From IMG/VR virus record IMGVR_UViG_3300046171_000096, positions 1-36,590 of that record: a stretch of DNA of 36,590 nt. One strand, written 5' to 3'. Each line of letters opens with the position of its first letter. Within the stretch, counting starts at the first letter, position 1. Made by a program: the position numbers and the translations under genes. The stretch comes from a virus. This document shows, piece after piece, positions 16,985-36,288 of the stretch. The notes under the pieces were generated by a model that did not search any database, had not been told where the DNA came from, and saw nothing but the letters and a program-made list of their open reading frames with translations.

Positions 16985-18070
16985 ATGACAACTCTTTCAA
17001 GAAAAGAACAATTAGGTATCCTTACTGGATGGCCTGAGTTCTGCAAGTGGGTTACAAACACAAACAACCGCATCTATGTAGGTTGGTTTGGTGTTCTAAT
17101 GATTCCTTGCTTATTAGCAGCAGCTGCATGCTTCGTAATTGCATTCATCGCTGCACCACCTGTCGATATTGACGGTATTCGTGAACCAGTAGCTGGTTCC
17201 TTTTTATATGGAAACAACATCATCTCAGGAGCAGTCGTTCCTAGCTCAAACGCAATCGGACTACACTTCTACCCAATTTGGGAAGCAGCTACTTTGGATG
17301 AATGGTTGTACAACGGAGGACCATATCAACTCGTTATATTCCACTTTCTCATCGGTATCTCAGCTTACATGGGACGACAATGGGAACTTAGTTATAGATT
17401 AGGTATGAGACCTTGGATCTGTGTAGCTTATTCAGCTCCAGTGTCAGCAGCATTCGCAGTATTCCTTGTATACCCATTCGGTCAAGGTTCATTCTCTGAC
17501 GGAATGCCTTTAGGTATCTCTGGAACATTCAACTTCATGTTTGTTTTCCAGGCAGAGCACAACATTCTTATGCACCCATTCCACATGGCTGGTGTTGCAG
17601 GTATGTTCGGAGGATCTTTATTCTCAGCAATGCATGGTTCACTTGTTACTTCATCTCTAATCAGAGAAACAACTGAAGATGAATCTCAGAACTATGGTTA
17701 CAAATTCGGACAAGAAGAAGAAACTTATAACATCGTTGCAGCTCATGGCTACTTCGGTAGATTAATTTTCCAATATGCTTCTTTCAACAACAGCAGAAGT
17801 CTTCACTTCTTCCTAGCTGTATTCCCAGTTGTTTGTGTATGGTTAACATCTATGGGTATTTGCACAATGGCATTTAACCTAAATGGATTTAACTTCAACC
17901 AATCAGTTGTTGATGCAAACGGTAAAATCGTTCCTACATGGGGTGACGTTCTAAACAGAGCTAACTTAGGTATGGAAGTAATGCACGAGCGTAACGCTCA
18001 TAATTTCCCACTCGATCTAGCATGTGCTGAGTCTACAACAGTAGCTCTTACAGCTCCTGCAGTCGGTTAA
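16985..18070 (+). CDS. psbA: Photosystem II reaction centre protein D1
   Basis: The 361-residue product is a complete D1 with five transmembrane helices. It replaces damaged host D1 in thylakoid photosystem II during infection and so keeps electron flow and energy supply going. All key residues are present, shifted by +2 from standard numbering: redox Tyr Y163 and D172; E191 and H192 of the Mn/Yz site; H200 (P680 ligand); H217 and H274 (non-haem iron); S266 (QB site); H334, E335, H339, D344 and A346 (Mn cluster and C-terminal processing site). The 15-residue extension after A346 begins CAESTT. Residue 132 (standard 130) is Gln, the D1:1-type state. It is on the opposite strand to nearly all virion genes, followed by hli and a terminator. 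It has no clear SD of its own. Confidence 0.99.
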
Positions 18071-22484: not shown

Positions 22485-23519
22485 TTATTCCATTACTAAC
22501 ATCTTGTTTCTGAAGATATCAGGTGACTGTTGTGCCTGATTTAAATATCTCCATGCTTGAGCTGGATCTTTGTCAGTTACTGCTCCAAAGTTATTCCAAA
22601 AATCACCAGTGTTTTCTGGTGCTTGTGGCTGTGGAGGAACTGGCATCTGAGGACGTGCAAATCTTGGATCTGCCTGTGCTGCTGCAGCTTGCTGCTGTTG
22701 TAATGCAGCTGCTTGCTGCTGTTGTGTTATTCCTGGATTTCCTACATATTGTCCTGCTGACTCTTCTTCTACTGGATATGGACCATTAGGACCATAGAAT
22801 TCACAAGTGTAATCAGCTAATGTATCAGGATTAGTTAAAATCTGCTCATAAGCTTTATGCTCTTCAGATAATTCCTTTAATAAACCAACAGCTTCTTGTA
22901 GCTGATTGTTTGTTGTTATTAAAGCATCTTCGACTTTTACTGCATAGTCATTTAAGACTGCTGGAGCATCTGCACCGAAGTGATTAATTACTTCAAGACT
23001 TTCTGGACTTACCCCGTTTTCTAGGAGTTGCTGGTCGCTGATTGCCTGCGAAGTTTGGGAAGAGTTGTTCGAGTATGCCTGGTTGCTCCCGTTCAAAGGC
23101 TGCGATATCTGCTGACCCTGATTGTTGTATGAAGGAGCTTGTGGGGAACTGTAATTCGCCTGGCCGTACTCTTGTGTCGCTGGAGACTGTTGACCCAGGA
23201 AGGGGATTTGCACTGGTGAACTCAGGAGCCCTACCACCCGGTTGAATGCGTCCTTGTATGGATTCTCCGCTTGAGGAGCCGATGGGCTGCTCTGGGGGCT
23301 TGACGGTATAGGGGCGTATGGGACTTGTGTTGTACCCATCTGGGCTTGCACTTGTGGTGCTGGTGCCACTGCTGCCTGCTGAGGTGCTACCCACTGAGGC
23401 GTTGTCGCCACTGCTGGAGCCTGGGCTGCTGTTTGTGAAACTGGAGCCCCGTAGGTTGGCTGTGGGGTCGCTGATTGTTGGGGTACCGATTGGGTCGGCA
23501 TTGCGGTATCGGCCTGCAT
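22485..23519 (-). CDS. P/Q-rich scaffold-like protein overlapping the portal gene
   Basis: 344 residues. Residues 1-176 are Pro/Gln/Ala/Ser-rich and disordered, and are encoded in the +1 frame inside the last 527 bases of the portal gene. Residues ~165-235 form a coiled coil (DALITTNNQLQEAVGLLKEL). A Q/A-rich segment follows and the end is helical (AQAWRYLNQAQQSPDIFRNK). The start is well supported: AAGGAAG lies at 23526-23532, six bases from the ATG. Position after portal and a helical, acidic, partly disordered make-up fit a scaffolding protein, but no sequence signature proves it. A terminator follows 28 bases after the stop. Confidence 0.65.
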   Translation of the reverse strand: MQADTAMPTQSVPQQSATPQPTYGAPVSQTAAQAPAVATTPQWVAPQQAAVAPAPQVQAQMGTTQVPYAPIPSSPQSSPSAPQAENPYKDAFNRVVGLLSSPVQIPFLGQQSPATQEYGQANYSSPQAPSYNNQGQQISQPLNGSNQAYSNNSSQTSQAISDQQLLENGVSPESLEVINHFGADAPAVLNDYAVKVEDALITTNNQLQEAVGLLKELSEEHKAYEQILTNPDTLADYTCEFYGPNGPYPVEEESAGQYVGNPGITQQQQAAALQQQQAAAAQADPRFARPQMPVPPQPQAPENTGDFWNNFGAVTDKDPAQAWRYLNQAQQSPDIFRNKMLVME

Positions 23520-25251
23520 AAGTTACTTCCTTCTGGAGTGATTCTAGTGTTCTATATAAGAAAGGGGTGAGATCTAATCTCGGATCTGCAGCCATCGGAA
23601 TATCCGGTTGCTGCGGATGTGGTGTTCTCATTTCTTGATTGATTAAGTCAAGGAATTGAGAATAAGCCCTTTGTACTTGTCCTACCATTCTGAATGGAAA
23701 TCCCGATAACATACCGGCAACTTCATCATCAGTTTTTGATGGGAATAAGTACTTCAGTGCTTCTATGCTATCAACACCTAATTCTTGTAGGTTTCTACAG
23801 AATATAGATTGCTGTACTTTATCCTGTGCTGTATCTTCATAAACAGGTCCCATCCATCTCCAGGCAACAGTTCTATCACCATCCGGAACTAATCCAAGAA
23901 CACCATTTGGTATCTCTTTTGTTTCTCTGGCAAGGTCAATTGCTCTCTGTAATTTCTTTTCGTATGTAATCTTCTGCTTCTCAAACTTTGCTAAAGACTC
24001 AGGAGTATCATCTACAGGTTCTTCAGGATATTTAATACCAGAAGCCTGTGCTAATGTCTTACGGAATATCTGTTCCTCCTGAAAGATCATCAACTCAAAA
24101 CATTTACAAATACCATATTCATATATCTGTAAACATTTCTTTTTAGCTGTAGCACTTACTCTTCCATACTGAGATTTAATTTCAGTTGCAGTTACATTGC
24201 TGATTGATATATCATCAATACCACCTAAAGCTAAACGTATTTCATTTCTTAACTGTGATACATATCTAGATTGATCTGTACTTACTGCATTAGGAGTAAT
24301 AAAACCAACACGATCTGAAGGTTCCAAGTTAGCAATAACTCTGGGAACTCTCATTCCTTGACCTGGACTGCCATTATATCCGACTGGATTTCTACTTGTA
24401 GGATCTTGTTTATATGTAGATTGAAGTGTACTTAAATCAGAAGTAAATCCAGATTGACTTGAAATACTTGGTCTTTGTGGTGGAGCATCCTTACTACTTT
24501 CAACAATGTCCTGTTTAGGACGTGAAGATAATAAAGTTGGATTACCAAAGAATGAAAGGTTAGCTCTAATGTTTTTAACCATCTCATCATGAGCAACAAT
24601 CTGATTAGATATCCAATCAAACTCGCCACTACCGTCAGTACCAAAAGCATCAGGATTATTGAATACTTCTACACAAGGAATGAATTGAAGTGTGTTTGTA
24701 AGTTCTTTCTTATTTATTGCTGTAAAATCTTGTGGTCCATCAAAACTTAATTCCTGTTCACTATGTGTTTCTTCGATAGTCTCTGCTGTAATACGAAGAC
24801 GCATATATCTTTTATCTGTACTTAATCCAATCTGTGATCCACCAAAGCCTTTATTAGATTTAACTTTATAAGGATAGATAACTATTACTTCTTCTAACTC
24901 TCCCTCTGGAGAATAGAAAGTTCTATATGAATCTCTATCAAACCAATAAAGTCTATATGTTTTTTCTGTAGGACGAATATAAAATAAACCTTTTCCTAAA
25001 GCTAAAAAGTGATCCCATATGGAATCTAATCTTGCATCAAGCTGATTGAACTTAATTACCTGTTTTATAAAGTCATATCTCTGTGATCCGAAGTTATCTT
25101 GTTCAGGATAGAATTCAACACCCTGTCTGATACCAAACATCTTCATCTGTGATAGATGAGCGTTGATAAGCATCGTGTCAGCATTACCCGTTGATTCACG
25201 GCTTATTGCTGCTTTCAGCATTGATTCAAAAGTAGAATTAGTTTGATTCAT
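22993..25251 (-). CDS. Portal protein
   Basis: 752 residues. The N-terminal two thirds have the expected portal features: long helices (YDFIKQVIKFNQLDARLDSI), a YWFDRDSYRTFYSPEGE beta region and a helical stem-like part (KSQYGRVSATAKKKCLQIYE, FEKQKITYEKKLQRAIDLAR). It lies directly downstream of the large terminase, separated only by a 62-residue gene. The last ~175 residues (578-752) are Ser/Gly/Pro-rich and end in a basic PRKRGKSRKS tail; this part is encoded in the overlap with the scaffold-like gene. Total length is long for a portal, mainly because of that tail. Assignment rests on order and general character. Confidence 0.75.
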   Translation of the reverse strand: MNQTNSTFESMLKAAISRESTGNADTMLINAHLSQMKMFGIRQGVEFYPEQDNFGSQRYDFIKQVIKFNQLDARLDSIWDHFLALGKGLFYIRPTEKTYRLYWFDRDSYRTFYSPEGELEEVIVIYPYKVKSNKGFGGSQIGLSTDKRYMRLRITAETIEETHSEQELSFDGPQDFTAINKKELTNTLQFIPCVEVFNNPDAFGTDGSGEFDWISNQIVAHDEMVKNIRANLSFFGNPTLLSSRPKQDIVESSKDAPPQRPSISSQSGFTSDLSTLQSTYKQDPTSRNPVGYNGSPGQGMRVPRVIANLEPSDRVGFITPNAVSTDQSRYVSQLRNEIRLALGGIDDISISNVTATEIKSQYGRVSATAKKKCLQIYEYGICKCFELMIFQEEQIFRKTLAQASGIKYPEEPVDDTPESLAKFEKQKITYEKKLQRAIDLARETKEIPNGVLGLVPDGDRTVAWRWMGPVYEDTAQDKVQQSIFCRNLQELGVDSIEALKYLFPSKTDDEVAGMLSGFPFRMVGQVQRAYSQFLDLINQEMRTPHPQQPDIPMAADPRLDLTPFLYRTLESLQKEVTYAGRYRNADPIGTPTISDPTANLRGSSFTNSSPGSSSGDNASVGSTSAGSSGTSTTSASPDGYNTSPIRPYTVKPPEQPIGSSSGESIQGRIQPGGRAPEFTSANPLPGSTVSSDTRVRPGELQFPTSSFIQQSGSADIAAFEREQPGILEQLFPNFAGNQRPATPRKRGKSRKS

Positions 25252-25480: not shown

Positions 25481-27004
25481 TCAATACTCTAACTCTAGTT
25501 TTCCTCTGGACATTAATCCATTACATAACCAGACCAGTGCATCGACACAATCATCATGAGAACTGACTCCGAAATTAACAATCTCATCTGTCAGTGCTTG
25601 AAATTTACGATATTTATTAAATAATATCTTATGTTGCTCAAATAAGCCCATGATTCCTCTGAATCTGGCAACTTTATCTCCTCTGAATCCTTTTACCGGA
25701 TGCCAGAGAAGATTATAAAGTCCTTGTTCTTCTAAACATATACGTTTAAAGTCTGCTTCTAATGATGCCTGATAAGCCACAGCTTCAGACCAGACATCTA
25801 CAGTACTACCAGTAGGGAAGTATTTATCTTTATCTTTATGAACTATTCCCCATTCATACATCATTTCCATTATTGCTTCTAACTTTTCTACATTACCCAT
25901 TATTCTTAACCTCTTACAGTCAATAATATAAATTTTGTCTCCCACTCTTCCTCCCATAACAAAGACTGTATAGTCATTTCTTTCTCTGATACCTGCAGAT
26001 AAATCAACTCCAACACCTATACAATCAAATTCAGTTGGTATCTGACCTTTAATAATTAGATCAGGTGAAAGAGACATATCAGTAGTTCTTACTATCTGAT
26101 TCTGATACTGGAAACTAAAACTTATCGGTGATTGTCTTTTACGATCTTTTAAATATTCAAGTGACCACATATCCGGCCAGTAAGATTTTTCATCACCTTC
26201 TTCATTAACAGTTACTGCTGATTGAATTATCTGTATCCAATCATTATCAGGAGTAAATGTAGTCTGATGTATATCATCATGTCTGAATCTTGTACCAAGA
26301 CATATAGCCCTACCACCTTCAAACATGGTTGGAACAATAACTGAGTTCCAGTTATCCTCCATAGCTACACGAATATCTTTATTCTTAATATCATCAGCTG
26401 ATTTTATAGCATCATCAATGATGCATAAATGAGAACGCTTAGATGTAACAGCACCTTTCAGTCCTGCACAACATAAACTAAATTCTTCTTCACCAGTTGA
26501 TCTTATACCTGCAAACTTCCAATCAATACTCCAATATTCATTAGAGTTTATACCTTTGGCAATTTTTACCGTAGGAAATATTTCTCTATAAAGTTTACTA
26601 TCTTCAATGATTCTTTTTATTGCAGCACTCTTTGGTCTGGCAACATCAACTGTATATGAGATATATAAAATCTTTAATGGTTTCTTATTAAGAGCATGAA
26701 TACCAATAGCCCATGCTGTAAACAAACCTAAAACTGTGGACTTTGCTGATCCTCTTGGTGCAAGTATATCTACATTTGGTCCGGCAATATCAATTAGACA
26801 TTCACTATCTTGATGTGTATATAGATGTTCATGCCATAACTTCATATGTTCTGCAGGAGGTTTATCTCCTACAACATCACAGAAGTATGCAAAATCTTTT
26901 CTAGCTCTATCAACATCAATAGAAGATGTTTTTCTTACAACCTGTTGTTTAGCAGCTGCACGAGCAGTTCTGCGATAAACCGAATAAATACTGGTTCCAG
27001 CCAT
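25481..27004 (-). CDS. terL: Terminase large subunit
   Basis: 507 residues, the DNA-packaging motor and nuclease that docks on the portal. The ATPase has a Walker A variant APRGSAKST (residues 82-90), a Walker B LCIIDDA (193-199) and a following CLGTRFRHDD coupling region. The C-terminal RNase H-like nuclease shows GVGVDLSAG (first acidic residue, near 333), TVDVWSEA in the middle and a final SSHDDCVDALVWL with the third acidic cluster. All are in the usual order, so the enzyme should be active. It follows the candidate small subunit by 24 bases and precedes the AbrB-like and portal genes. Confidence 0.93.
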   Translation of the reverse strand: MAGTSIYSVYRRTARAAAKQQVVRKTSSIDVDRARKDFAYFCDVVGDKPPAEHMKLWHEHLYTHQDSECLIDIAGPNVDILAPRGSAKSTVLGLFTAWAIGIHALNKKPLKILYISYTVDVARPKSAAIKRIIEDSKLYREIFPTVKIAKGINSNEYWSIDWKFAGIRSTGEEEFSLCCAGLKGAVTSKRSHLCIIDDAIKSADDIKNKDIRVAMEDNWNSVIVPTMFEGGRAICLGTRFRHDDIHQTTFTPDNDWIQIIQSAVTVNEEGDEKSYWPDMWSLEYLKDRKRQSPISFSFQYQNQIVRTTDMSLSPDLIIKGQIPTEFDCIGVGVDLSAGIRERNDYTVFVMGGRVGDKIYIIDCKRLRIMGNVEKLEAIMEMMYEWGIVHKDKDKYFPTGSTVDVWSEAVAYQASLEADFKRICLEEQGLYNLLWHPVKGFRGDKVARFRGIMGLFEQHKILFNKYRKFQALTDEIVNFGVSSHDDCVDALVWLCNGLMSRGKLELEY

Positions 27005-27510: not shown

Positions 27511-28221
27511 TTATGATTTGTAAGCGTCTCGTGACTGTTGGAAATCTCTATTCTCTTTATAGCGTCTAAATGCCTCTTGTTGCAAGGCAGTTCTTCTAGC
27601 TTCTTCTCCAGACTTACCAATAGCAGCCCTTTGTTCTACACCTCTAGTTTGTGTAGTAAGTCTTTCCTGTGTTCCTTCTGTTTCTCTAGTCTGTCTTGTT
27701 TGAGCACCTTCAGTTTCCCTGGTACGTCTAGTTTCTGCACCAGTTGTACCGATAGCTAAACGCTGTTGAAGACCTTCAACCATTCTAGTTCCTCTAGTTT
27801 GTTTACCTTCTTCTGCTCTAGTTAATCTAGTTTCTGCACCTGTAGTACCGATAGTTGCTCTCTCTTCTTTTCCTGCAGTTTCTCTAGTTCTTCTTGTCTG
27901 GAAACCTTCTTCAGCACGAGTCAATCGTGTTTCACTACCTGTAGTACCGATAGTTGCTCTTTCCTGTTCTCCTCTTGTTTCAGAAAGCAAGCGTTCCTCA
28001 GCACCTCTGGCTCTGTATCTTCTCAGATCCTGACCAGTATAGAACTCTTCGTTGATACGATCTAAATCGGCACCAGTTTCCATATTCAACCTGGTCTGTT
28101 CACCAGTTAACTTTGCTAACTCAGTTTGAGTTTGTAAAGACTGCGTTGGTGTAGACACCGTAACAGGTGGTGGTGGAGCAGGTATATATTCAACTCTTGG
28201 TGCTGGTGGTCTTCCTCCCAT
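27511..28221 (-). CDS. Hendecad-repeat coiled-coil protein, probable internal virion protein
   Basis: 236 residues. After a Pro-rich start (PRVEYIPAPPPPVTV), nearly the whole protein consists of 11-residue units such as ERATIGTTGSE, TRLTRAEEGFQ and TRRTRETAGKE. Three of these make a 33-residue super-repeat present three times (residues 87-119, 120-152, 153-185). Hendecads give long, slightly right-handed or straight coiled coils. The repeat is very rich in Arg, Thr and Glu and contains no Cys or Trp. Similar ATIGTTG/ETR repeats occur in internal virion proteins of other marine podoviruses as I recall. It ends next to the candidate small terminase. A rod or channel in the virion is inferred. 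Confidence 0.6.
   Translation of the reverse strand: MGGRPPAPRVEYIPAPPPPVTVSTPTQSLQTQTELAKLTGEQTRLNMETGADLDRINEEFYTGQDLRRYRARGAEERLLSETRGEQERATIGTTGSETRLTRAEEGFQTRRTRETAGKEERATIGTTGAETRLTRAEEGKQTRGTRMVEGLQQRLAIGTTGAETRRTRETEGAQTRQTRETEGTQERLTTQTRGVEQRAAIGKSGEEARRTALQQEAFRRYKENRDFQQSRDAYKS
27667..27963 (-). repeat. Three 99-bp tandem coding repeats (33 residues each)
   Basis: The three copies (27865-27963, 27766-27864, 27667-27765) encode residues 87-185. Each is itself three 11-residue units. Identical words such as IGTTGAETR recur, while the DNA has diverged at third positions, indicating maintained protein structure. Confidence 0.75.
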
Positions 28222-28264
28222 AACAAAAATCTAATCTATTAATTTAATTTTAGTGCAAAAACTC

Positions 28265-28927
28265 TTATCTACCACCAGCTCTACCTCTCGGTGCAAGTCC
28301 AGCTGTAGAAATATTGACTGCTGTGTTTCCTTGATTAGCAATGGCATTCATTAAAGCTGCCTCTCCCTGTCTGGCTCTTAGTATCTGTTGAGAGATTTTA
28401 GTAGGTGAAGATCTATCTTCCATTAATCTTCTCTGTGCAGCAGTTTCTGCAGCTATATCAATCAATGGCATAGTCTGTTTAAATAAACTTAACTGTCTTT
28501 TAGCTTCTCTACCAGATTCATAGTCTCTCATTAAAGAATCAGTTACCTGCATTCCTCTAAGATTTCCAAAGAATTTATCTTCATTAAATGCTTGGTTTGG
28601 TAATTGAGTTTGATTTGGATCAGCCTCTGGTGGTCTTAATGCATCAGCTACTTTTGATCCAGCTCCTGAAATAGCTTCAGTCATTCCAAAATCAGGTAAG
28701 TTGAATGGTCCTATATTTAACTTTCCTTTTCTTTCTCCTTCTTTACCATATATAAAATTACTTAAAAAGTTCTGTCCTGGTTGATTATTAGTTGTTACCT
28801 TTGCATCTGATTTAGTCTTAGCACTAGAACGTCCTCCTGTATTGGAGTAATTCTTATTCATCAAGAATCCAAATTGATCCTCAACTCTATCTGAAGTATT
28901 TCTAGGTCTGTTCTGTCTTCTAGACAT
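28265..28927 (-). CDS. Probable internal virion protein
   Basis: 220 residues. A disordered basic start (MSRRQNRPRNTSDRVEDQFG) is followed by a short Phe/Pro/Gly region (LNIGPFNLPDFGMTEAISGA), long helices from ~120 on (RDYESGREAKRQLSLFKQTM, QQILRARQGEAALMNAIANQ) and an Arg/Gly end (LAPRGRAGGR). No known motif. Spacing of 5 bases to the upstream gene and 43 to the hendecad gene places it in the internal virion block. Function inferred only from context and helical, Gln/Ala-rich make-up. Confidence 0.5.
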   Translation of the reverse strand: MSRRQNRPRNTSDRVEDQFGFLMNKNYSNTGGRSSAKTKSDAKVTTNNQPGQNFLSNFIYGKEGERKGKLNIGPFNLPDFGMTEAISGAGSKVADALRPPEADPNQTQLPNQAFNEDKFFGNLRGMQVTDSLMRDYESGREAKRQLSLFKQTMPLIDIAAETAAQRRLMEDRSSPTKISQQILRARQGEAALMNAIANQGNTAVNISTAGLAPRGRAGGR

Positions 28928-28932
28928 GAGGT

Positions 28933-29397
28933 TTATTGATACTGATAGTTAGAAGTTAATGCGTTTCCTGCTGCTCCCATTCCTTGTTGTGCTAATGCTT
29001 GAGCACCTCTTTGTCCCTGTAATGTTAAACCTTGTTGTGTGCCAAGTTGAGTACGGAATCTAGCAGCTGCCATGTTACGCTCGAAGTCTCTTGACTTTGC
29101 TCTATCTGTTATTGGCTCTATTGCTAACAAGTTTTTGATCATATTCTCTCTTTGCTGTTTACCCATCTGAGTCTGGTATCCAAGTTGAGCTTGATAACCA
29201 CTAGTAGGTCCAAACATTCCAGGTCCAAAGCCTGTTCCGTATCCAAAGTTATTTGTAGGATCTCCTAAAATTTGACTTTGATTTATTAAGTTTTCTATTT
29301 CTTTTCTTTGTCCAGCTTTTTTAATCTCATTTAGACCAAATCCTGCTCCTAGAAGACCTGCTCCTACTTTTACTCCTAATGGTATTGCTGCAAACAT
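28933..29397 (-). CDS. Probable internal/tail virion protein with N-terminal hydrophobic segment
   Basis: 154 residues. Residues ~3-24 (AAIPLGVKVGAGLLGAGFGL) form an amphipathic/hydrophobic Gly-rich helix. The middle is Gly/Gln/Tyr-rich (FGYGTGFGPGMFGPTSGYQA), and the C-terminal half is helical and Gln/Ala-rich (AAARFRTQLGTQQGLTLQGQ). This resembles small internal core proteins that insert into the host envelope on injection. No family signature. Confidence 0.5.
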   Translation of the reverse strand: MFAAIPLGVKVGAGLLGAGFGLNEIKKAGQRKEIENLINQSQILGDPTNNFGYGTGFGPGMFGPTSGYQAQLGYQTQMGKQQRENMIKNLLAIEPITDRAKSRDFERNMAAARFRTQLGTQQGLTLQGQRGAQALAQQGMGAAGNALTSNYQYQ

Positions 29398-29441
29398 TTT
29401 TTTAATTAACTCCTTTGATTATTATTTTAAGGTCAGCAAAC

Positions 29442-29846
29442 TTAGAAGTAGCTTCCTACTCTGCCACCAAGTTGAGCACCTGTCATAGCTCCGACACCTA
29501 ATGGTCCACCTAATGCAGCTCCAGCTACAGTTCCGATCAATCCACCGAATGATCTACCTTGTTGTCCTTGAAGAGTAAATCCAGGATCTGTTACACCTTC
29601 TACTACAGTTGCATCATCAGATATCTTTGTACTGCCTCTTTTGTATGACTCTGCTAACTCTTTAGCTGTCTTTCTTTGTTCGTTAGCTTGAAAACTTATT
29701 TGATCTTTCGCTTTTAAGTTTTCATTTATAGCATTAAAGATACCGGCACCTCTACTTGGTTTAGTGCTTCTTCTATAGTTATCAGCTTCTTTAAAAGCTC
29801 TTTGCTCTGTTTCTTTATAGTTAGCTGGATAATTTGCAGTAGTCAT
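29442..29846 (-). CDS. Small virion protein with C-terminal glycine zipper
   Basis: 134 residues. The N-terminal ~75 residues are charged and helical (FKEADNYRRSTKPSRGAGIF, SFQANEQRKTAKELAESYKR). The C-terminus is a glycine-zipper membrane segment (GGLIGTVAGAALGGPLGVGA). A TLQGQQGRSFGG linker echoes the TLQGQRGAQALAQ of the neighbouring 154-residue protein. Probable membrane-interacting injection factor; no family recognised. Confidence 0.5.
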   Translation of the reverse strand: MTTANYPANYKETEQRAFKEADNYRRSTKPSRGAGIFNAINENLKAKDQISFQANEQRKTAKELAESYKRGSTKISDDATVVEGVTDPGFTLQGQQGRSFGGLIGTVAGAALGGPLGVGAMTGAQLGGRVGSYF

Positions 29847-29849
29847 TTG

Positions 29850-31535
29850 CTATTGAGTATAGTCACCACGTTTGTACTTCTTATATTGTAAGGGGTCTTC
29901 TTTCTTGATTCTTTCTTGTTCAGCTTTCTGGAATAATTTTTTAGCTACAGCAGCAGTACCAAGAGCAGCTAATGTGCCACCAAGAATTATAGCTGGTTCT
30001 TTTAATCCGGGATTCCTTGCAAATGCATCTTGGAACTTTGCTCCTGCTTTACCAAGGTTTCTTGTGGCATATTGTTTCGTTGCATCAACTGTTGAATCTA
30101 TTTCTCTTTGTACTCTAACTTTCTCATCACCTGCAAATTGTCCAGGACTTCTACTATCACCAAGACCAGACAATCCAGGGATATTTAATTGATCTCCTTT
30201 TTTATCAATATCCTTTATAGCTATATCAATACCAGCTCTTTCCTGTCTCAGATCTTTTAATTTTTCTTGTAACTTAGTTGCAGGCATTCTGACTTTAGTA
30301 TCTTCTCCTGGTCTAGGAGCAAAAAATCTAGGTGATCCATCATCATTGATAGCACCTTTAGTTCCAACTTTAGGAATATATCCAGATACTCTTTCTGCCC
30401 CTTGTTCTCTTCTATTCTCAGGAATATTCTGTAATGGACCTTGTGGCATCTTTTGACCAGCTCTTCTAAATCTTTCTGATACTTCTGCATGAGTTTGCAT
30501 CCCTGTTCCCTGACTTGTATCAGGTGTTATATCAGAAGCCATGACAGGTTGCATGTTACTAAGTCCAAGACCTTTAGGATCTAAGAATTTTTTAGCAGCT
30601 GCTATAGTCCCTACACCAGCACCAATTCCAAGTACTGAACTAGCTGTTATAGGAGCCCCCTTAACTCTGATTTCTGGATCATTTAATCCACGGGCTGTTC
30701 CTTTTACAAGTCCACCAAATGCAGTGAATGTCTGTTTATCTCGATCTATATCTATACGATTACCAGCTTCTGGTTTACGATTTACATAACGTCTATAGTC
30801 TGCAATAGTTGATGGCATAACATCAGGACGTTCTTTTATAAATTCTTTAAAGGGTAACATCTGACTTCTCTGGAATGTATATGTTCTAAGTGCCCCTTCT
30901 TCTATTATGTTTCTTGGTGTTCTACCTGTAGGGTCTTCATCTTTAGAAACAGGTGCTACTGCTTTATAACCTTTTGGTCTAAATCCATCTAAGGGTGATC
31001 CTAATTGTCCTGACAATGTTGCGTAAAGTAAAGGTACACCAGCTGCCACAGCAGCTTTAGCTACTGGACTTTCTAAGCCTGTGTACTTACTGGCAGATAC
31101 TCCTGCATCACTTGCCATGCGATGTGGATTTGTATATTTATTAAAATTTAATTGAGCCTGTTTAGTGAGTAAAGTATTACCTGCAACATCTGCTATAACT
31201 TTATCTGCTGGAAAAGTTTCTTTTATTGCTTTCCCTGCTTGTTTTATTGGTTCATCAGAAAAACGTATATCATCAATTTTCTGCTGTCTCATTTCTGCAG
31301 CGAATTTTCTTTGATCTGGAGATGTTTTTGCTCCATACATCTGAGTATTAAATCTACTTTGCCACAAATTATTACCTAAACGCTCACCTGTTCTATTAGC
31401 AACTTCTGTTGCAGTCTTTAGACCTTCAGCAACTTTACCAGGGATATTACTTTCTTCAACTACTTTTTGAATAGGGTCTGTAAATTGTTTTAAAAACTCT
31501 AAACTATTCGAAAAAGGGTTACGAATTTCTGCCAT
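29850..31535 (-). CDS. Large internal virion protein with hydrophobic segments
   Basis: 561 residues. Charged helices (EMRQQKIDDIRFSDEPIKQA) are interspersed with three Gly/Ala-rich hydrophobic segments: AAVAAGVPLLYATLSGQLGS near residue 165, SSVLGIGAGVGTIAAAKKF near 300 and ILGGTLAALGTAAVAKKLFQ near 525. A central coiled coil (TKLQEKLKDLRQERAGIDIA) is present. The end is basic (KKYKRGDYTQ). The mix of helices and membrane-active segments is typical of ejected podoviral core proteins. It lies 3 bases from the zipper gene and 4 from the 310-residue gene. No enzymatic motif seen. Confidence 0.55.
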   Translation of the reverse strand: MAEIRNPFSNSLEFLKQFTDPIQKVVEESNIPGKVAEGLKTATEVANRTGERLGNNLWQSRFNTQMYGAKTSPDQRKFAAEMRQQKIDDIRFSDEPIKQAGKAIKETFPADKVIADVAGNTLLTKQAQLNFNKYTNPHRMASDAGVSASKYTGLESPVAKAAVAAGVPLLYATLSGQLGSPLDGFRPKGYKAVAPVSKDEDPTGRTPRNIIEEGALRTYTFQRSQMLPFKEFIKERPDVMPSTIADYRRYVNRKPEAGNRIDIDRDKQTFTAFGGLVKGTARGLNDPEIRVKGAPITASSVLGIGAGVGTIAAAKKFLDPKGLGLSNMQPVMASDITPDTSQGTGMQTHAEVSERFRRAGQKMPQGPLQNIPENRREQGAERVSGYIPKVGTKGAINDDGSPRFFAPRPGEDTKVRMPATKLQEKLKDLRQERAGIDIAIKDIDKKGDQLNIPGLSGLGDSRSPGQFAGDEKVRVQREIDSTVDATKQYATRNLGKAGAKFQDAFARNPGLKEPAIILGGTLAALGTAAVAKKLFQKAEQERIKKEDPLQYKKYKRGDYTQ

Positions 31536-31539
31536 TCAT

Positions 31540-32472
31540 CTAGTAACTAGTTGATCTCATCATGCTTTGAGCAAGACTGGCTAAAGTTTGATTATTTGAA
31601 TCGGGGCTCATATGCATCACTGTACTGGGCATTTTTTCTATCTGAGCCATCTTCAATCTATATTCATACTTCTCTCTTTCTGATAATGCTTCTCTTGCTT
31701 GTACTCCAGATAGATCTGTAGTTGATGGTCTTACTACTTGAGCTGATTCAGGTTCTGCAGTGAACTTAGTTGCACCAGTAGGAGTAGTTGGTCCCTCACC
31801 AAATTCTACAGGATAATCCTGTTTACCAGGGAGGAATGCATCTGTTGCTTTTGCTCCAGCTATCTGACCTGCTACTTGTCCACCAAATGTAGCGATTGAT
31901 GGATTAACTCCTCCAGCCATTAAACCAGCAGATACTGGCATACCAATACCCTGACTTACTCCCTGACGTAAAAAGCTTTCTCCTAAACCTGATCTTGGTT
32001 GTTGTCCCATTATACGAGGAACTAGTTGTTCAGCTGCAACACCAATTCCTGTTTGCACTGCATAAGGACTAGATGCCATTCTACCTAGATTTCTTACTCC
32101 CTCAGCACCAGCTTCTCCTCCTACTTTTGCTCCCACACCAACTGCAGCTTCTCCTACTTTTCCTGCTGCTTTACTAGTTGCATCTCCTACGAATCTTGCT
32201 CCGGCTTTTATAGTTTCAGGTCCTTTCATTACTCCTTTTCCTACAGCTGTTAAGTCATCACCTAATGCTGAAGCTAATTCACCTCTTCGTTGATAAAGTT
32301 CTTTTCCTGTAGATTTAGCATACTGACCAACTTGTTTTCCTATATTGCCAGCTTGTTGAGTAACTCTTTTCACTCCTTCTTTAGCAAAGAAGTCACTGAG
32401 TTTCTGACCAGCCATTGTGATTCCTTTCTTGGCTGCTTCTACTCCTGCTTTTCCAATGAAACTACTTGTCAT
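31540..32472 (-). CDS. Ala/Gly-rich internal virion protein
   Basis: 310 residues. The first ~140 form amphipathic, Lys/Gly/Ala-rich helices (VGQYAKSTGKELYQRRGELA, AGKVGEAAVGVGAKVGGEAG). A hydrophobic middle follows (GMPVSAGLMAGGVNPSIATF, GQVAGQIAGAKATD). The C-terminal 80 residues are polar with a helical YEYRLKMAQIEKMPSTVMHM. No domain recognised. Its ATG overlaps the 138-residue gene's stop (ATGA). Probable ejected protein, by composition and neighbours. Confidence 0.5.
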   Translation of the reverse strand: MTSSFIGKAGVEAAKKGITMAGQKLSDFFAKEGVKRVTQQAGNIGKQVGQYAKSTGKELYQRRGELASALGDDLTAVGKGVMKGPETIKAGARFVGDATSKAAGKVGEAAVGVGAKVGGEAGAEGVRNLGRMASSPYAVQTGIGVAAEQLVPRIMGQQPRSGLGESFLRQGVSQGIGMPVSAGLMAGGVNPSIATFGGQVAGQIAGAKATDAFLPGKQDYPVEFGEGPTTPTGATKFTAEPESAQVVRPSTTDLSGVQAREALSEREKYEYRLKMAQIEKMPSTVMHMSPDSNNQTLASLAQSMMRSTSY

Positions 32473-32885
32473 GTTATTTTTAATCCATCTGTTGGGAATT
32501 GACCATTAACTGGTGCATCTTTCGGGTTACCTGTCATATATTCTAAGATACCCTCTCTGCTAGGCTTCTCATCTTCATTAACTAATATTGAATTTCTAAA
32601 CTTAGTTAAGAAAGCATCTGACTTAACTTGTTGACTGGGATCATTGAATTGCCCCATGTTATCTGCTTGTGTGATTAGATTTTTTCTAACAACTTCTGCT
32701 CTTTGATCATCAAACTGTCCAGGTGATTCTTTGGTATAAAGTTTGTTTGTATCTCTCATCTTTGCTACAAACTTATTTGTAAAGTCTGTATTAGTTCTGC
32801 CAGAAAAATCTATATTATTATCTATGGCTTCACCCTTCCTAACCAGTTGATCTCTACGACTTAGTTTGTAATCGAATACTGACAT
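32469..32885 (-). CDS. Unrecognised virion-block protein
   Basis: 138 residues, charged and soluble: DYKLSRRDQLVRKGEAIDNN, then NTDFTNKFVAKMRDTNKLYT and an end in DAPVNGQFPTDGLKIT. No membrane segment, coiled coil or motif. Translational coupling with the Ala/Gly-rich gene (ATGA) and 2-base spacing to the upstream gene suggest the same assembly pathway. Unknown function. Confidence 0.5.
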   Translation of the reverse strand: MSVFDYKLSRRDQLVRKGEAIDNNIDFSGRTNTDFTNKFVAKMRDTNKLYTKESPGQFDDQRAEVVRKNLITQADNMGQFNDPSQQVKSDAFLTKFRNSILVNEDEKPSREGILEYMTGNPKDAPVNGQFPTDGLKIT

Positions 32886-32887
32886 AG

Positions 32888-33082
32888 TTATTTCTTTTTA
32901 CGTTTACGTAGTTTACTTAAAGTTTTAGCTAGGTTAGCCTGACGGACTGTACGAGTATCATACTCATCTGGATTAGATGTTACCTTTGATGCAAACTCTT
33001 TTACATCCATCCCCCTTTTCTCTGCTTTCTTAGTAAAAGCACCAGGGCGTTTGATAGCATCTTTAATCCATTTATCAGCCAT
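32888..33082 (-). CDS. Small basic conserved viral protein
   Basis: 64 residues, lysine/arginine-rich. The sequence DKWIKDAIKRPGAFTKKAEK, then GMDVKEFASKVTSNPDEYDT and TVRQANLAKTLSKLRKRKKK follows the 'K-W-I-x-x-A-I-K-R/K-P-G-A-x-T-K-K-A ... M-x-V-x-E-F-A-x-K-V ... T-V-R-Q-A-x-L-A-x-T-L' pattern that I recognise from many marine phages and some giant viruses. Function unknown; the pattern is strongly conserved and nucleic-acid binding would fit its charge. It lies 26 bases from the upstream gene. Confidence 0.65.
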   Translation of the reverse strand: MADKWIKDAIKRPGAFTKKAEKRGMDVKEFASKVTSNPDEYDTRTVRQANLAKTLSKLRKRKKK

Positions 33083-33108
33083 TGGATAAATCTATTTTAA
33101 CAGTAGCC

Positions 33109-33294
33109 TTATTCAAATAAAGCTTTTTCTAGTTGTGCAACTAGTAGGTCATCTACTTTGTTACCACTCTTAGCAGCAGCTTTTTTTAGTAATGCTATTA
33201 CAAATTTCTTTAGAAGATCATCTAAGTCTTCTGGGATTTTATCAACAGCTTTGTTTATAACGTTGATTGCGATTGGTAATAAAAATTTAGTCAT
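33109..33294 (-). CDS. Small amphipathic helical protein
   Basis: 61 residues, entirely helical, with an N-terminal hydrophobic stretch (TKFLLPIAINVINKAVDKIP) and two amphipathic helices (DLDDLLKKFVIALLKKAAAK, VDDLLVAQLEKALFE). Similar short 'L-P-x-A-x-x-V-I-N-K-A-x-D-K-I-P' proteins occur in other phages as hypotheticals. It could be membrane-associated. Function unknown. Confidence 0.5.
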   Translation of the reverse strand: MTKFLLPIAINVINKAVDKIPEDLDDLLKKFVIALLKKAAAKSGNKVDDLLVAQLEKALFE

Positions 33295-33318
33295 AATTTT
33301 ATGTTCTTGAATTTAATT

Positions 33319-36288
33319 CTAACCTCCCTGTTGTCTTCTTTTCTCTGACATTCTTTTTGCTATTAATGCATTTACATCTAATGCTCTTCCTATACCTTCT
33401 TCACTTGTTATACCTGAACTACTTGTTGATTCTGGTGCATTTGATTTTTGTATGGGAATACCACCAATTACTCTTTTGCCTTTATTTCTCATAGTTTTAA
33501 TCATATCTTTAGTTCCAGCTCCTCCAGGGAAAGCAATTAAGACATCTCCTTCTGCAGCCATATCTGCATTACGTATTGGACCAGCTGCTTTTCCATATTC
33601 ATTCCAATCTGCTTTAAATCTTTGTATACCTAATTTATTTTCACTAGCATAGCGTTCTCCTAAATTATCAGCTCCTTTGGCTCCTCCAGAAATAATATTT
33701 ATTTCTGTGCCAGGTTTTAAAGTTGATCTAAAATTATCTAACTTAGTTTTTACAGCTTCATAATCAGAATAATCTCTACCTCCAGCTACTATGACATTTA
33801 GTGGTCTGCTTTCAGATTTTTCTTTAGCAGCCTGTCTAAGTTCTCCTGTAGGATCTTTTTGATTTAAATAATTTTGAACACGTTGTTTAACTGTAGTTGG
33901 ATCTCCTGTTTTGTAAATCTCTTGAATCTCACCAGCTATGCCAGTAGGTTTAGATCCTGCTGTCATATCTCCAACAGTAACTTCTCTAAGATCTCCATCT
34001 CTATCTTTTATAAGCTTAGTGCCAGGTTGTTGTAAAGAGAATCCCCCTTGTTTACCTGTTTCTACTTCTTCTGGAAAATCGAGCCCACCAGTATCTATTA
34101 CTCGTTTAGTATCTTGTTTTCTTTCAATATCTGGAATAACTTTAACTTCAAGTTGAGGATCTAATTTATTAAATCCACCTGTTGTTAAATCATCTCTTTG
34201 TTGTACATCTACTTTGTAACCTGTACCTCTTTCTTTTCCAAAGTTTTGTAAGGTTCTAGGAACTGATAAGTTACGTATATTCTCATCTGTTTTTCTTGTG
34301 ATGCCAGGGATTCTAGATTTTTGTTTAGCATAACTACCACGTAATTTATTTAACTCAGTTTCAACACGTTCTACCCCTGCTATGTTACCATCTTCTCTTA
34401 AACTATTTTGTAAATCTTTTAGTGCTTGTCCTCTTCGATTAATTGCCATCATATTATTTTTAGCTTCCATTTTTATCTTTCCTCTATAGTCTTTTTCTTG
34501 TTGTATTCTTTCATCTAATCTTTTTGCAGTAGGACCAAATGCAGCTGGTCTTTCAATGTCTGCTCTATCAATATTTTCACCACCTATTCTTACTGTTGTC
34601 TTACTTGGATCTTGCATGATTTCATCAAAGTCAGCACCCAATTGTATGTTCTGTTTTAGTTTAGTAAATTCAGGTCCAAAGTCAGCTGCTCTATCTCCTA
34701 TCATTACTGCTGTCATTTGATCAGCATGACTACGAGCTAATCTAGGACTATTTTTATATATTAATCCAGATTTTAATCTGTCACCAAGAATTTCAGCTTG
34801 TTTTGGACTTACATTACCAGATATTAAATTTTCCATATTTTCTAAACGTAAATTATTTATTCTTGATTCCATATCATCTTGTTGTGGAATTCCTGTGCTA
34901 AATTTTCCAGGCATTACTGTTCCACTAGATACTGGACCTTCAGAGAATTGATCTTCTATAAACTCTCTTGTGTTCTGTCCTTGTTGTAACATTTGTCCTT
35001 TAACTTCTTCACCAGTTCCAACATCACTGGCAGCAGCAAATATATCTTCTTTAGGTTCTATTCTTGGTAATTTTGTAACTGCTAAAGATGGATTTCTTTC
35101 TTGTAACTTTCCAACTGGTGTTGTAGGAGCTGTTTCTATACCTGCTCCAGTTCTTCGTTGACCTGTAGTTGTAACTCCTGTTATTTGTACTGGACCACTT
35201 ACATTCCCTACTTCTGGTCTTCCTGGTAATAGTTTTTGTTCATCAGTTTTCTGAAGTATATTTCTTGCATCGTCTAAAACATTATCAACTTCCATCTTTG
35301 TAAGATGTTGATCTGTCAATGTAGATCCGCCAACTTCCCCTGCACTGGTAGGAATTACATTTGTGGTATTTCCAGTACCAAGTTGTACTAAAGCACTCCC
35401 TTGTTGTACACTTTCGGGGAGTATTATTTTTGGTCCAGGTTTTACAAGATTTATAAGCTCATCTACTTGTGCTGGTATCTGTGAAGCTATCTTTAATTCA
35501 CCAAGAGCTTTTCTATATGGAGTTTGTGGTCCTACAGCAGGATCTAAATCATATCCAGCAAACTTACGACCTGTTATTGTTGCATCTTCATCAGTTCTTC
35601 CTCTTACATTAGAATTTACATAGCCAAGATCAAAGTCTCTAGCTTTTCCTGCTTCTCTTATGAGTGATTGTTTTGTTCTTGCAGCATCTTCTGGATTTAA
35701 ATTACTAAGATATTTTCCATATGTACGATCAACTCTTTGTTCTAGATTACTAATATCTCCATAAGGATCTTCTTTACTAATAGAACCTTCTGTAAAAGAA
35801 GTTTTACCTTGAACTATAGGTGTAAAACTATCTTTCTCAGGAGTTACTTCTACTGTGACTTGAGTTTTCTGAGCTGGAGCTGTATTTGACTGTTGTACTG
35901 AAGGATCTGGAGTTACATCACCATATGCATCGACAATATCTACATCAACATCTTTTGGACGGGCAAAATTACTTAAAAAGTCATCTGCTTTAGTTCTTGT
36001 AGCAGCAGCAGCCTTTTTTACTGTGTTTTGAACACGTTCATCTCTACCAGCAGCTACCGCAGCAGCAATTCCACCAGCAATTAATGCTCCTTTAGCTATT
36101 TTTTTACCTAAATCTCCTTCTTTTTTTGGTTCTTCAGCTTCTTTTCCCTCTAGCATCCCTTCTTTACCCAAATTCTGGATAAAATTATGTACTTCAGGAC
36201 CCTTTTGGGCTCTTTCTTTAGGAGTGGAAGGATACTTATTACCTGTTAACCTTGCCCAGAGTGAAAAATCGTTCGGAGATATGACCAT
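33319..36288 (-). CDS. Large putative internal virion protein with C-terminal SLOG domain
   Basis: 989 residues, the largest gene here and first of the internal virion block. A hydrophobic segment (KGALIAGGIAAAVAAGRDER) lies near residue 70. A long, mostly disordered or helical region with two near-copies of a helix (e.g. KRLDERIQQEKDYRGKIKME) occupies ~90-820. Residues 828-941 form a clear SLOG (DUF2493/YspA-like) domain: NVIVAGGRDYSDYE, ISGGAKGADNLGERYA, GPIRNADM and FPGGAGTKDM, i.e. a Rossmann-type nucleotide-binding site with its G-G, G-G-A-x-G-A-D and P-G-G-x-G-T loops. A 48-residue basic tail follows. SLOG proteins bind nucleotides or ADP-ribose-like ligands. The virion role comes from neighbours and composition. 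Confidence 0.65.
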   Translation of the reverse strand: MVISPNDFSLWARLTGNKYPSTPKERAQKGPEVHNFIQNLGKEGMLEGKEAEEPKKEGDLGKKIAKGALIAGGIAAAVAAGRDERVQNTVKKAAAATRTKADDFLSNFARPKDVDVDIVDAYGDVTPDPSVQQSNTAPAQKTQVTVEVTPEKDSFTPIVQGKTSFTEGSISKEDPYGDISNLEQRVDRTYGKYLSNLNPEDAARTKQSLIREAGKARDFDLGYVNSNVRGRTDEDATITGRKFAGYDLDPAVGPQTPYRKALGELKIASQIPAQVDELINLVKPGPKIILPESVQQGSALVQLGTGNTTNVIPTSAGEVGGSTLTDQHLTKMEVDNVLDDARNILQKTDEQKLLPGRPEVGNVSGPVQITGVTTTGQRRTGAGIETAPTTPVGKLQERNPSLAVTKLPRIEPKEDIFAAASDVGTGEEVKGQMLQQGQNTREFIEDQFSEGPVSSGTVMPGKFSTGIPQQDDMESRINNLRLENMENLISGNVSPKQAEILGDRLKSGLIYKNSPRLARSHADQMTAVMIGDRAADFGPEFTKLKQNIQLGADFDEIMQDPSKTTVRIGGENIDRADIERPAAFGPTAKRLDERIQQEKDYRGKIKMEAKNNMMAINRRGQALKDLQNSLREDGNIAGVERVETELNKLRGSYAKQKSRIPGITRKTDENIRNLSVPRTLQNFGKERGTGYKVDVQQRDDLTTGGFNKLDPQLEVKVIPDIERKQDTKRVIDTGGLDFPEEVETGKQGGFSLQQPGTKLIKDRDGDLREVTVGDMTAGSKPTGIAGEIQEIYKTGDPTTVKQRVQNYLNQKDPTGELRQAAKEKSESRPLNVIVAGGRDYSDYEAVKTKLDNFRSTLKPGTEINIISGGAKGADNLGERYASENKLGIQRFKADWNEYGKAAGPIRNADMAAEGDVLIAFPGGAGTKDMIKTMRNKGKRVIGGIPIQKSNAPESTSSSGITSEEGIGRALDVNALIAKRMSEKRRQQGG

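What the first reader, a model, noticed from the sequence alone, without database searches (positions are those of the whole stretch)
33466..33807. SLOG nucleotide-binding domain fused to a putative internal/ejected virion protein
Seen: residues 828-941 of the 989-residue protein have the full SLOG/DUF2493 loop set (AGGRDY, SGGAKGAD, RNAD, PGGAGT). Known: SLOG folds bind nucleotides or ADP-ribose derivatives, and SLOG domains act as sensors in bacterial anti-phage systems such as Thoeris ThsA. Inference: if the protein is in the capsid and is ejected with DNA, the domain could bind or sequester a host signalling nucleotide at the moment of entry. This would be a pre-formed counter-defence not needing phage gene expression. 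Alternatively it could have a structural role in the virion.
Basis: partly seen in the sequence, partly recalled or inferred. Interest (0 to 1): 0.7.

Follow-up and report, generated by a model that had tools for sequence, protein, structure and literature searches.

The report
Nucleotide-binding domain on virion ejection protein
An ocean virus of photosynthetic bacteria carries a small nucleotide-binding domain on the end of a long protein that looks like those injected into the host with viral DNA, so it may act on the host before any viral gene is switched on.

Summary
Residues 828-941 of the 989-aa minus-strand protein (33319-36288) are a YAcAr/DUF2493 SLOG domain (Pfam E 9e-16; PHROG E 4e-29), predicted as a five-strand Rossmann-like fold (pLDDT 85) matching DprA, LOG and ThsA-SLOG structures. 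It is the only annotated domain found in this protein. The phage is an S-EIV1-like marine cyanophage.

The "internal/ejected protein" guess gains indirect support. The gene heads a run of ten genes (2,867 aa) without one cysteine, while 61 cysteines lie in the other 30 same-strand genes counted. The carrier family is cysteine-free in 74 of 74 relatives (51,989 aa). T7 gp15 and gp16, N4 vRNAP and P22 gp7, gp20 and gp16 also have none.

SLOG is an accessory module: 4 of 74 family members with the N-terminal signature, plus one truncated member, carry it. It sits after the family's C-terminal motif in two phages and before it in three. No free-standing copy was found in 45 related records.

Counter-defence is untested. 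ThsB/TIR hits are uncommon in the likely host family (14 and 22 of 251 genomes), and a DNA-binding role is a live rival.

The parts
33319..36288 (-). 989-aa carrier protein, first gene of the same-strand virion run; cysteine-free
36154..36288 (-). conserved N-terminal signature, residues 1-45 (M-x-[IV]-S-P-x-[DE]-[FY]..LW..TGN.YP..), predicted helical
36043..36111 (-). Ala/Gly-rich hydrophobic segment, residues 60-82
   Evidence: (A68, L69, G72, A75 invariant in 13)
35494..35766 (-). moderately confident helical region, residues 175-265; the rest of the middle is low confidence or variable
33832..33948 (-). family C-terminal motif, residues 781-819, lying before the SLOG domain here and after it in L002, L003 and L089
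33466..33807 (-). SLOG (YAcAr/DUF2493) domain, residues 828-941
33322..33465 (-). C-terminal tail, residues 942-989
33109..33294 (-). 61-aa conserved gene following the carrier (phrog_402)
32888..33082 (-). 64-aa conserved gene (phrog_20603), also next to the positional counterpart in S-EIV1
27511..32885 (-). seven further cysteine-free genes (138, 310, 561, 134, 154, 220 and 236 aa) of the same run, several with Ala/Gly-rich hydrophobic stretches
25481..27004 (-). terminase large subunit (11 Cys; contrast gene)

Best explanation
The protein is an internal virion protein of an S-EIV1-like cyanophage, packed in the head and delivered with the DNA. Its SLOG domain is an accessory C-terminal cargo that binds a nucleotide-type ligand (an ADP-ribose derivative or another nucleotide) in the host cytoplasm at entry, before phage genes are expressed, most likely to blunt a host nucleotide signal. 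Shown: the domain, its predicted fold, its conserved loops, its modular gain or loss, purifying selection on it, and the cysteine-free run of genes. Inferred: presence in the particle, ejection, and the ligand and its purpose.
For: SLOG identity and fold. All four loops kept in 5 of 5 carriers despite about 33% identity between the two fused types. Between L003 and L089 the SLOG is the best-kept stretch (85% identity, pN/pS 0.41) against 52% and 0.84 in the middle. First gene of the run leading to terminase, portal and capsid. Ten consecutive genes with 0 Cys in 2,867 aa against 61 Cys in 7,191 aa in the other 30 genes counted. Carrier family 0 Cys in 51,989 aa from the conserved start. The 310-aa and 561-aa neighbours are Cys-free in 18 of 18 and 58 of 58, while terminase and portal are Cys-free in 0 of 89 and 0 of 49. 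S-EIV1 has the same: 0 Cys in its first nine genes, 2,434 aa. Controls: T7 gp15/gp16, N4 vRNAP, P22 gp7/gp20/gp16 have 0 Cys; T7 gp14 has 1. Print precedent: absence of Cys in N4-type vRNAP tied to passage through the tail (PMC3915230, passage); viral SLOG proposed to counter host cADPR-type signals (PMC9503650, passages).
Against: No proteomics. Some proteins not known to be ejected are also Cys-free (T7 and P22 scaffold, N4 capsid, P22 needle). Fused SLOGs being Cys-free means little: 22 of 74 distinct viral SLOG domains found in other contigs are too. The LOG catalytic glutamate is missing (motif recalled), so hydrolysis is doubtful. ThsB_TIR in 14 and TIR_2 in 22 of 251 genomes of the likely host family. 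Most family members do without SLOG. Between window and L001 the SLOG is no better kept than the middle (pN/pS 0.48 for both).
Confidence: 0.45

Rival explanations
1. DprA-like reading: the carrier is ejected, but the SLOG binds the entering DNA (single strands or ends), to shield it or hand it to repair or replication proteins, rather than a small signal.
For: The best Foldseek match in the PDB is DprA (5.8e-5; Z 12.3 for 3uqz). The SLOG has net charge +5. A phage relative is fused to a PIF1-type helicase (ICP1). Several phage relatives are annotated DprA-like.
Against: Pfam's DprA model does not match P0001 up to E 1. Another relative is fused to DUF4326, which PMC7824862 (passage) links to NAD/ADP-ribose systems.
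Confidence: 0.27
2. Structural or assembly role: the carrier is a scaffold- or core-like head protein and the SLOG only adds bulk, oligomerisation or a capsid contact, with ligand loops kept by ancestry.
For: Scaffolds can also be Cys-free (T7 gp9, P22 gp8). Most of the carrier is predicted low-confidence or helical.
Against: The SLOG domain is under stronger constraint than the rest in L003/L089. SLOG is absent from most relatives with the same gene neighbours, including L016, which resembles the window protein up to the C-terminal motif and then ends.
Confidence: 0.15
3. Not a virion protein: a late-expressed cytoplasmic protein acting during assembly or lysis.
For: No particle data exist for this lineage in what I could read (the S-EIV1 paper is not held).
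Against: The cysteine-free run of ten genes, repeated in relatives and in S-EIV1, is unlike terminase and other cytoplasmic genes.
Confidence: 0.13

Closest known systems
Free-standing phage YAcAr/DUF2493 SLOG proteins (PF10686, phrog_289)
   Same: Same domain, same loops; up to about 47% identity to the window SLOG
   Different: There the domain is mostly a small separate gene (113-135 aa in 9 of 12 fetched); here it is the end of a long cysteine-free carrier
Podovirus ejection proteins (T7 gp15/gp16, P22 gp7/gp20/gp16) and N4 virion RNA polymerase
   Same: Long, cysteine-free, late-gene; N4 vRNAP carries an enzyme domain that acts at entry
   Different: No sequence similarity found; particle location unproven; a SLOG domain instead of polymerase or lysozyme
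Polyvalent proteins of phages and conjugative elements (PMC5512222)
   Same: Effector domains in long virion-delivered proteins
   Different: Those have 2 to 15 domains; here a single recognised domain; the main text of that paper does not mention SLOG
ThsA (Thoeris) SLOG sensor
   Same: Same fold; VIA Z 9.1, rmsd 3.4, 119 aligned to 7uxs bound to 3'cADPR
   Different: 13% identity, no SIR2 part, phage not host side

Membership tests
YAcAr/DUF2493 SLOG | Match to PF10686 above its curated cut-off | tested here: met
   57.9 bits against 28.2, residues 832-898
YAcAr/DUF2493 SLOG | Five-strand Rossmann-like fold with conserved G-R, SG-A-GxD, RN and GT loops | tested here: met
LOG phosphoribohydrolase | PGGxGTxxE with the catalytic glutamate (motif recalled) | tested here: not met
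   The window has PGGAGTKDM and L003 has DGGTGTEDF
ThsA (Thoeris effector) | SIR2 NADase domain beside the SLOG | tested here: not met
   No SIR2 match up to E 1 in P0001
ThsA-type cADPR sensor | Binding of cADPR isomers | not testable with these tools
   needs a binding assay
DprA | Match to the Pfam DprA model | tested here: inconclusive
   Not listed up to E 1 for P0001, but DprA is the top Foldseek match
Phage ejection protein | Late gene beside other virion genes, with hydrophobic segment | tested here: met
   a weak, non-specific feature
Phage ejection protein | Absence of cysteine, as in T7 gp15/gp16, P22 gp7/gp20/gp16 and N4 vRNAP | tested here: met
   some scaffolds share it, and T7 gp14 has one Cys
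Phage ejection protein | Present in the particle and released with DNA | not testable with these tools
   needs virion proteomics and ejection assay
Polyvalent protein | Two or more recognised effector domains in one chain | tested here: not met
   Only the SLOG domain is recognised

The most novel reading that the evidence does not exclude
S-EIV1-like phages use a cysteine-free injected carrier whose C-terminal end takes interchangeable cargo modules. In one group the cargo is a SLOG domain that captures a host nucleotide signal at the moment of entry, a counter-defence already present in the particle that needs no phage gene expression.
Probability: 0.25. Interest if true: 0.8.

Novelty: new variant of a known kind. 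Interest (0 to 1): 0.55.

Why it matters
Phage sponges that soak up host immune nucleotides are known as proteins made after entry (recalled; review listed, not read). PMC9503650 proposes that viral SLOG domains counter ADP-ribose signals but describes them as typically free-standing, and in the passages I read names Macro, NADAR and Nudix, not SLOG, among domains packaged in heads. A SLOG on an ejected protein would close that gap and give a testable case. Separately, the total absence of cysteine may be a cheap sequence marker for ejected proteins: here it flags a whole ten-gene set in a hardly studied cyanophage lineage and in its cultured member S-EIV1.

Tried and rejected
Direct homology to known ejection or structural proteins: none by PHROGs for the ten tested genes of the run (only short unknown families and the SLOG), and no tblastn match for residues 1-200 in the phage collection even at E 10; a related N-terminus gave only chance-level hits.

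Two independent SLOG gains: suggested by the two positions and the 33% identity between types, but not proven. The 17-row tree puts both fused types in one starred set with the SLOG of Synechococcus phage MinM2 (97/96), with long branches, and the AU test does not reject a single clade (p 0.298). The carrier tree needs two changes (gain or loss) of SLOG and places L089 beside SLOG-less L016, so N- and C-terminal parts have probably recombined.

Cysteine-free SLOG as a mark of adaptation to ejection: I first noted 10 of 10 SLOGs from named phages with Cys; the larger sample gave 22 of 74 without, so I dropped the point.

Other cargo domains: Pfam and PHROG scans of 39 (A1) and 42 (A4) family members, hand-picked from the 66 ORFs and the 74 with near-copies and non-homologues left out, gave SLOG in 5 of 39 (A1) and 1 of 42 (A4, in which only the window protein stood for the SLOG carriers) and otherwise only weak or single hits. 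A second, roughly 80-residue C-terminal module was found by comparing members: 18 of 74 at E 1e-3, of which 10 strongly and at the very end of the chain; the Pfam scan gave it no name.

Host link: YAcAr in 57, ThsB_TIR in 14, TIR_2 in 22 of 251 genomes. Genome names and completeness are not told, so this is only a rough prior. The 251 were drawn evenly from a larger group.

Not listed in the VIA or Foldseek tables is not taken as excluded.

Full report
What is there. The ORF 33319-36288 on the minus strand encodes 989 residues. Residues 828-941 lie exactly at 33466-33807. Pfam YAcAr (SLOG) matches 832-898 at E 9.1e-16 and phrog_289 matches 818-941 at E 4.2e-29. A tblastn search of the protein finds matches in 911 phage records; the 60 rows I saw all fall on the SLOG part.

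The phage. Terminase and capsid proteins are closest to Synechococcus phage S-EIV1 (64% and 69%), and psbA at 16985-18070 is 94-95% identical to Prochlorococcus proteins in the best full-length rows. The window is a 36,590-base virus record. A 2017 survey (PMC5332604, passage) counts the S-EIV1 group among the five most abundant marine cyanophage groups.

Fold. With an alignment of seven window and locus sequences (A5), AlphaFold2 gives pLDDT 85.4 and pTM 0.78, strands and helices alternating. PDB matches by Foldseek: DprA 3uqz 5.8e-5, ShosA 8zva, LOG proteins, ThsA 8btp and 7uxs. VIA-align Z values: 12.9 for a Moco-binding protein (rmsd 3.4, 118 aligned), 12.7 ShosA, 12.3 DprA, 9.1 for the ThsA SLOG bound to 3'cADPR (rmsd 3.4, 119 aligned). 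Viral library: DUF2493 protein of Vibrio phage Vp_R1, E 5.9e-12, 46% identity. So the fold is SLOG, but it does not decide between nucleotide and DNA. The full-length model is poor (mean pLDDT 48.5, 12 sequences): the N-terminal 42 residues, 175-265, part of 600-650 and the SLOG are the better parts.

The carrier family. The large gene upstream of the 64-aa gene was collected from IMG/VR, and more members by the N-terminus. An N-terminal profile finds 74 distinct ORFs. They share the first 45 or so residues and an Ala/Gly-rich segment, and in the marine group a C-terminal motif; the middle is highly variable. SLOG is present in 4 of the 74 (window, L001, L003, L089) and in L002, whose N-terminus is cut off by the contig end; Pfam gives 5 of 39 on a hand-picked subset. 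In 45 related records searched whole, PF10686 is found only in L001, L003 and L089, in the carrier, with no free-standing copy; many of these records are fragments.

Modularity. A profile of the C-terminal motif built from five SLOG-less members places it at 781-819 in the window protein, before the SLOG, but at 943-983 in L003, 738-778 in L002 and 893-927 in L089, after it. L016, 58% identical to the window protein in the A1 alignment, ends soon after the motif with no SLOG. The two fused SLOG types share about 33% identity, and the L003 type has no tblastn match among phage records. One or two origins cannot be told apart (AU p 0.298). Eighteen of 74 family members carry a different small module (E 1e-3), in 10 of them strongly and at the extreme C-terminus. 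The end of this protein therefore exchanges modules.

Constraint. Between L003 and L089 the SLOG is 85% identical with pN/pS 0.41, against 52% and 0.84 for the middle. Between window and L001 the SLOG (0.48) is like the middle (0.48). So purifying selection is seen, but of the two well-separated pairs only one shows the SLOG to be the best-kept part.

The cysteine-free run. Ten consecutive genes from 27511 to 36288 (2,867 aa) contain no cysteine, while the other 30 minus-strand genes counted hold 61 in 7,191 aa; the chance of all 61 missing the run is 1.2e-9, the run being chosen after seeing it. In relatives, from the conserved start, all 74 carriers have none in 51,989 aa; the ten cysteines first counted all lie in upstream extensions of the called ORFs. 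The 561-aa neighbour is cysteine-free in 58 of 58 relatives and the 310-aa one in 18 of 18; terminase in 0 of 89 and portal in 0 of 49. In S-EIV1 the first nine genes of the same run have 0 in 2,434 aa against 34 in 5,084 aa for the later genes taken, terminase included; its first gene matches the window carrier by position, not by the N-terminal signature.

Control for that signature. T7 gp15 and gp16, N4 vRNAP (3,500 aa) and P22 gp7, gp20 and gp16 have no cysteine; T7 gp14 and gp6.7 have one each. Against specificity: T7 gp7.3 and gp9, P22 gp8 and gp26, and N4 gp51, gp52, gp56 and gp57 also have none. PMC3915230 (passage) reports the same for N4-type polymerases and explains it by passage through the tail. 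I take this as indirect support for ejection, not proof. The review PMC8954989, in a word search of its main text, does not mention cysteine.

Mechanism. My preferred reading is delivery with DNA and capture of a nucleotide ligand at entry. PMC9503650 (passages) proposes that viral SLOG domains counter cADPR-type signals, and says they are typically free-standing. LOG-type catalysis is unlikely because the glutamate of the recalled PGGxGTxxE motif is missing. DNA binding is the main rival: DprA is the top Foldseek match and ICP1 fuses the same domain to a PIF1-type helicase. In 251 genomes of the likely host family, ThsB_TIR is found in 14, TIR_2 in 22 and YAcAr in 57, so Thoeris itself is a poor candidate target, though other signals are open.

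Novelty. My searches for SLOG with phage or virion terms and the passages read in PMC9503650, PMC7824862 and PMC5512222 showed no SLOG on an ejected or internal virion protein. The S-EIV1 paper itself is not held and may contain proteomics that settle the particle question. I file it as a new variant: a known domain on a carrier of known general kind, in a combination I did not find described.

Noticed in passing
window 27511-33294: Nine genes downstream of the carrier, all cysteine-free, have no named function in the PHROG scan; they are likely the rest of an internal or ejected protein set of S-EIV1-like phages.
   Followed up: partly
L097 372-447 aa, L196 412-491 aa, L182 426-505 aa and others: A different, roughly 80-residue C-terminal module in 18 of 74 carrier relatives, weakly like phrog_4357 in two.
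   Followed up: partly
window 27511-28221: The 236-aa protein is built of repeats (TRET/TIGTTGAETR-like) and its length differs in relatives: 137 aa in L001, 225 in L003, 148 in L002.
   Followed up: no
L254 2498-2857 (Cellulophaga phage phi17:2_18): A free-standing SLOG gene sits directly between two genes annotated as structural proteins, a second possible SLOG-virion link.
   Followed up: no
L255 1163-2848 (Vibrio phage ICP1): The same SLOG domain is fused to a PIF1-type helicase.
   Followed up: partly
window 16985-18070: psbA lies on the plus strand inside the mostly minus-strand virion region, between capsid and portal genes.
   Followed up: no
window 22485-23519 and 22993-25251: A 344-aa ORF overlaps the end of the portal gene by about 527 bases in another frame; not checked whether it is a gene.
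   Followed up: no
L339 1567-1923: A ThsB-like TIR ORF beside a GroEL-like gene in a 1.7 Mb genome of the likely host family.
   Followed up: no
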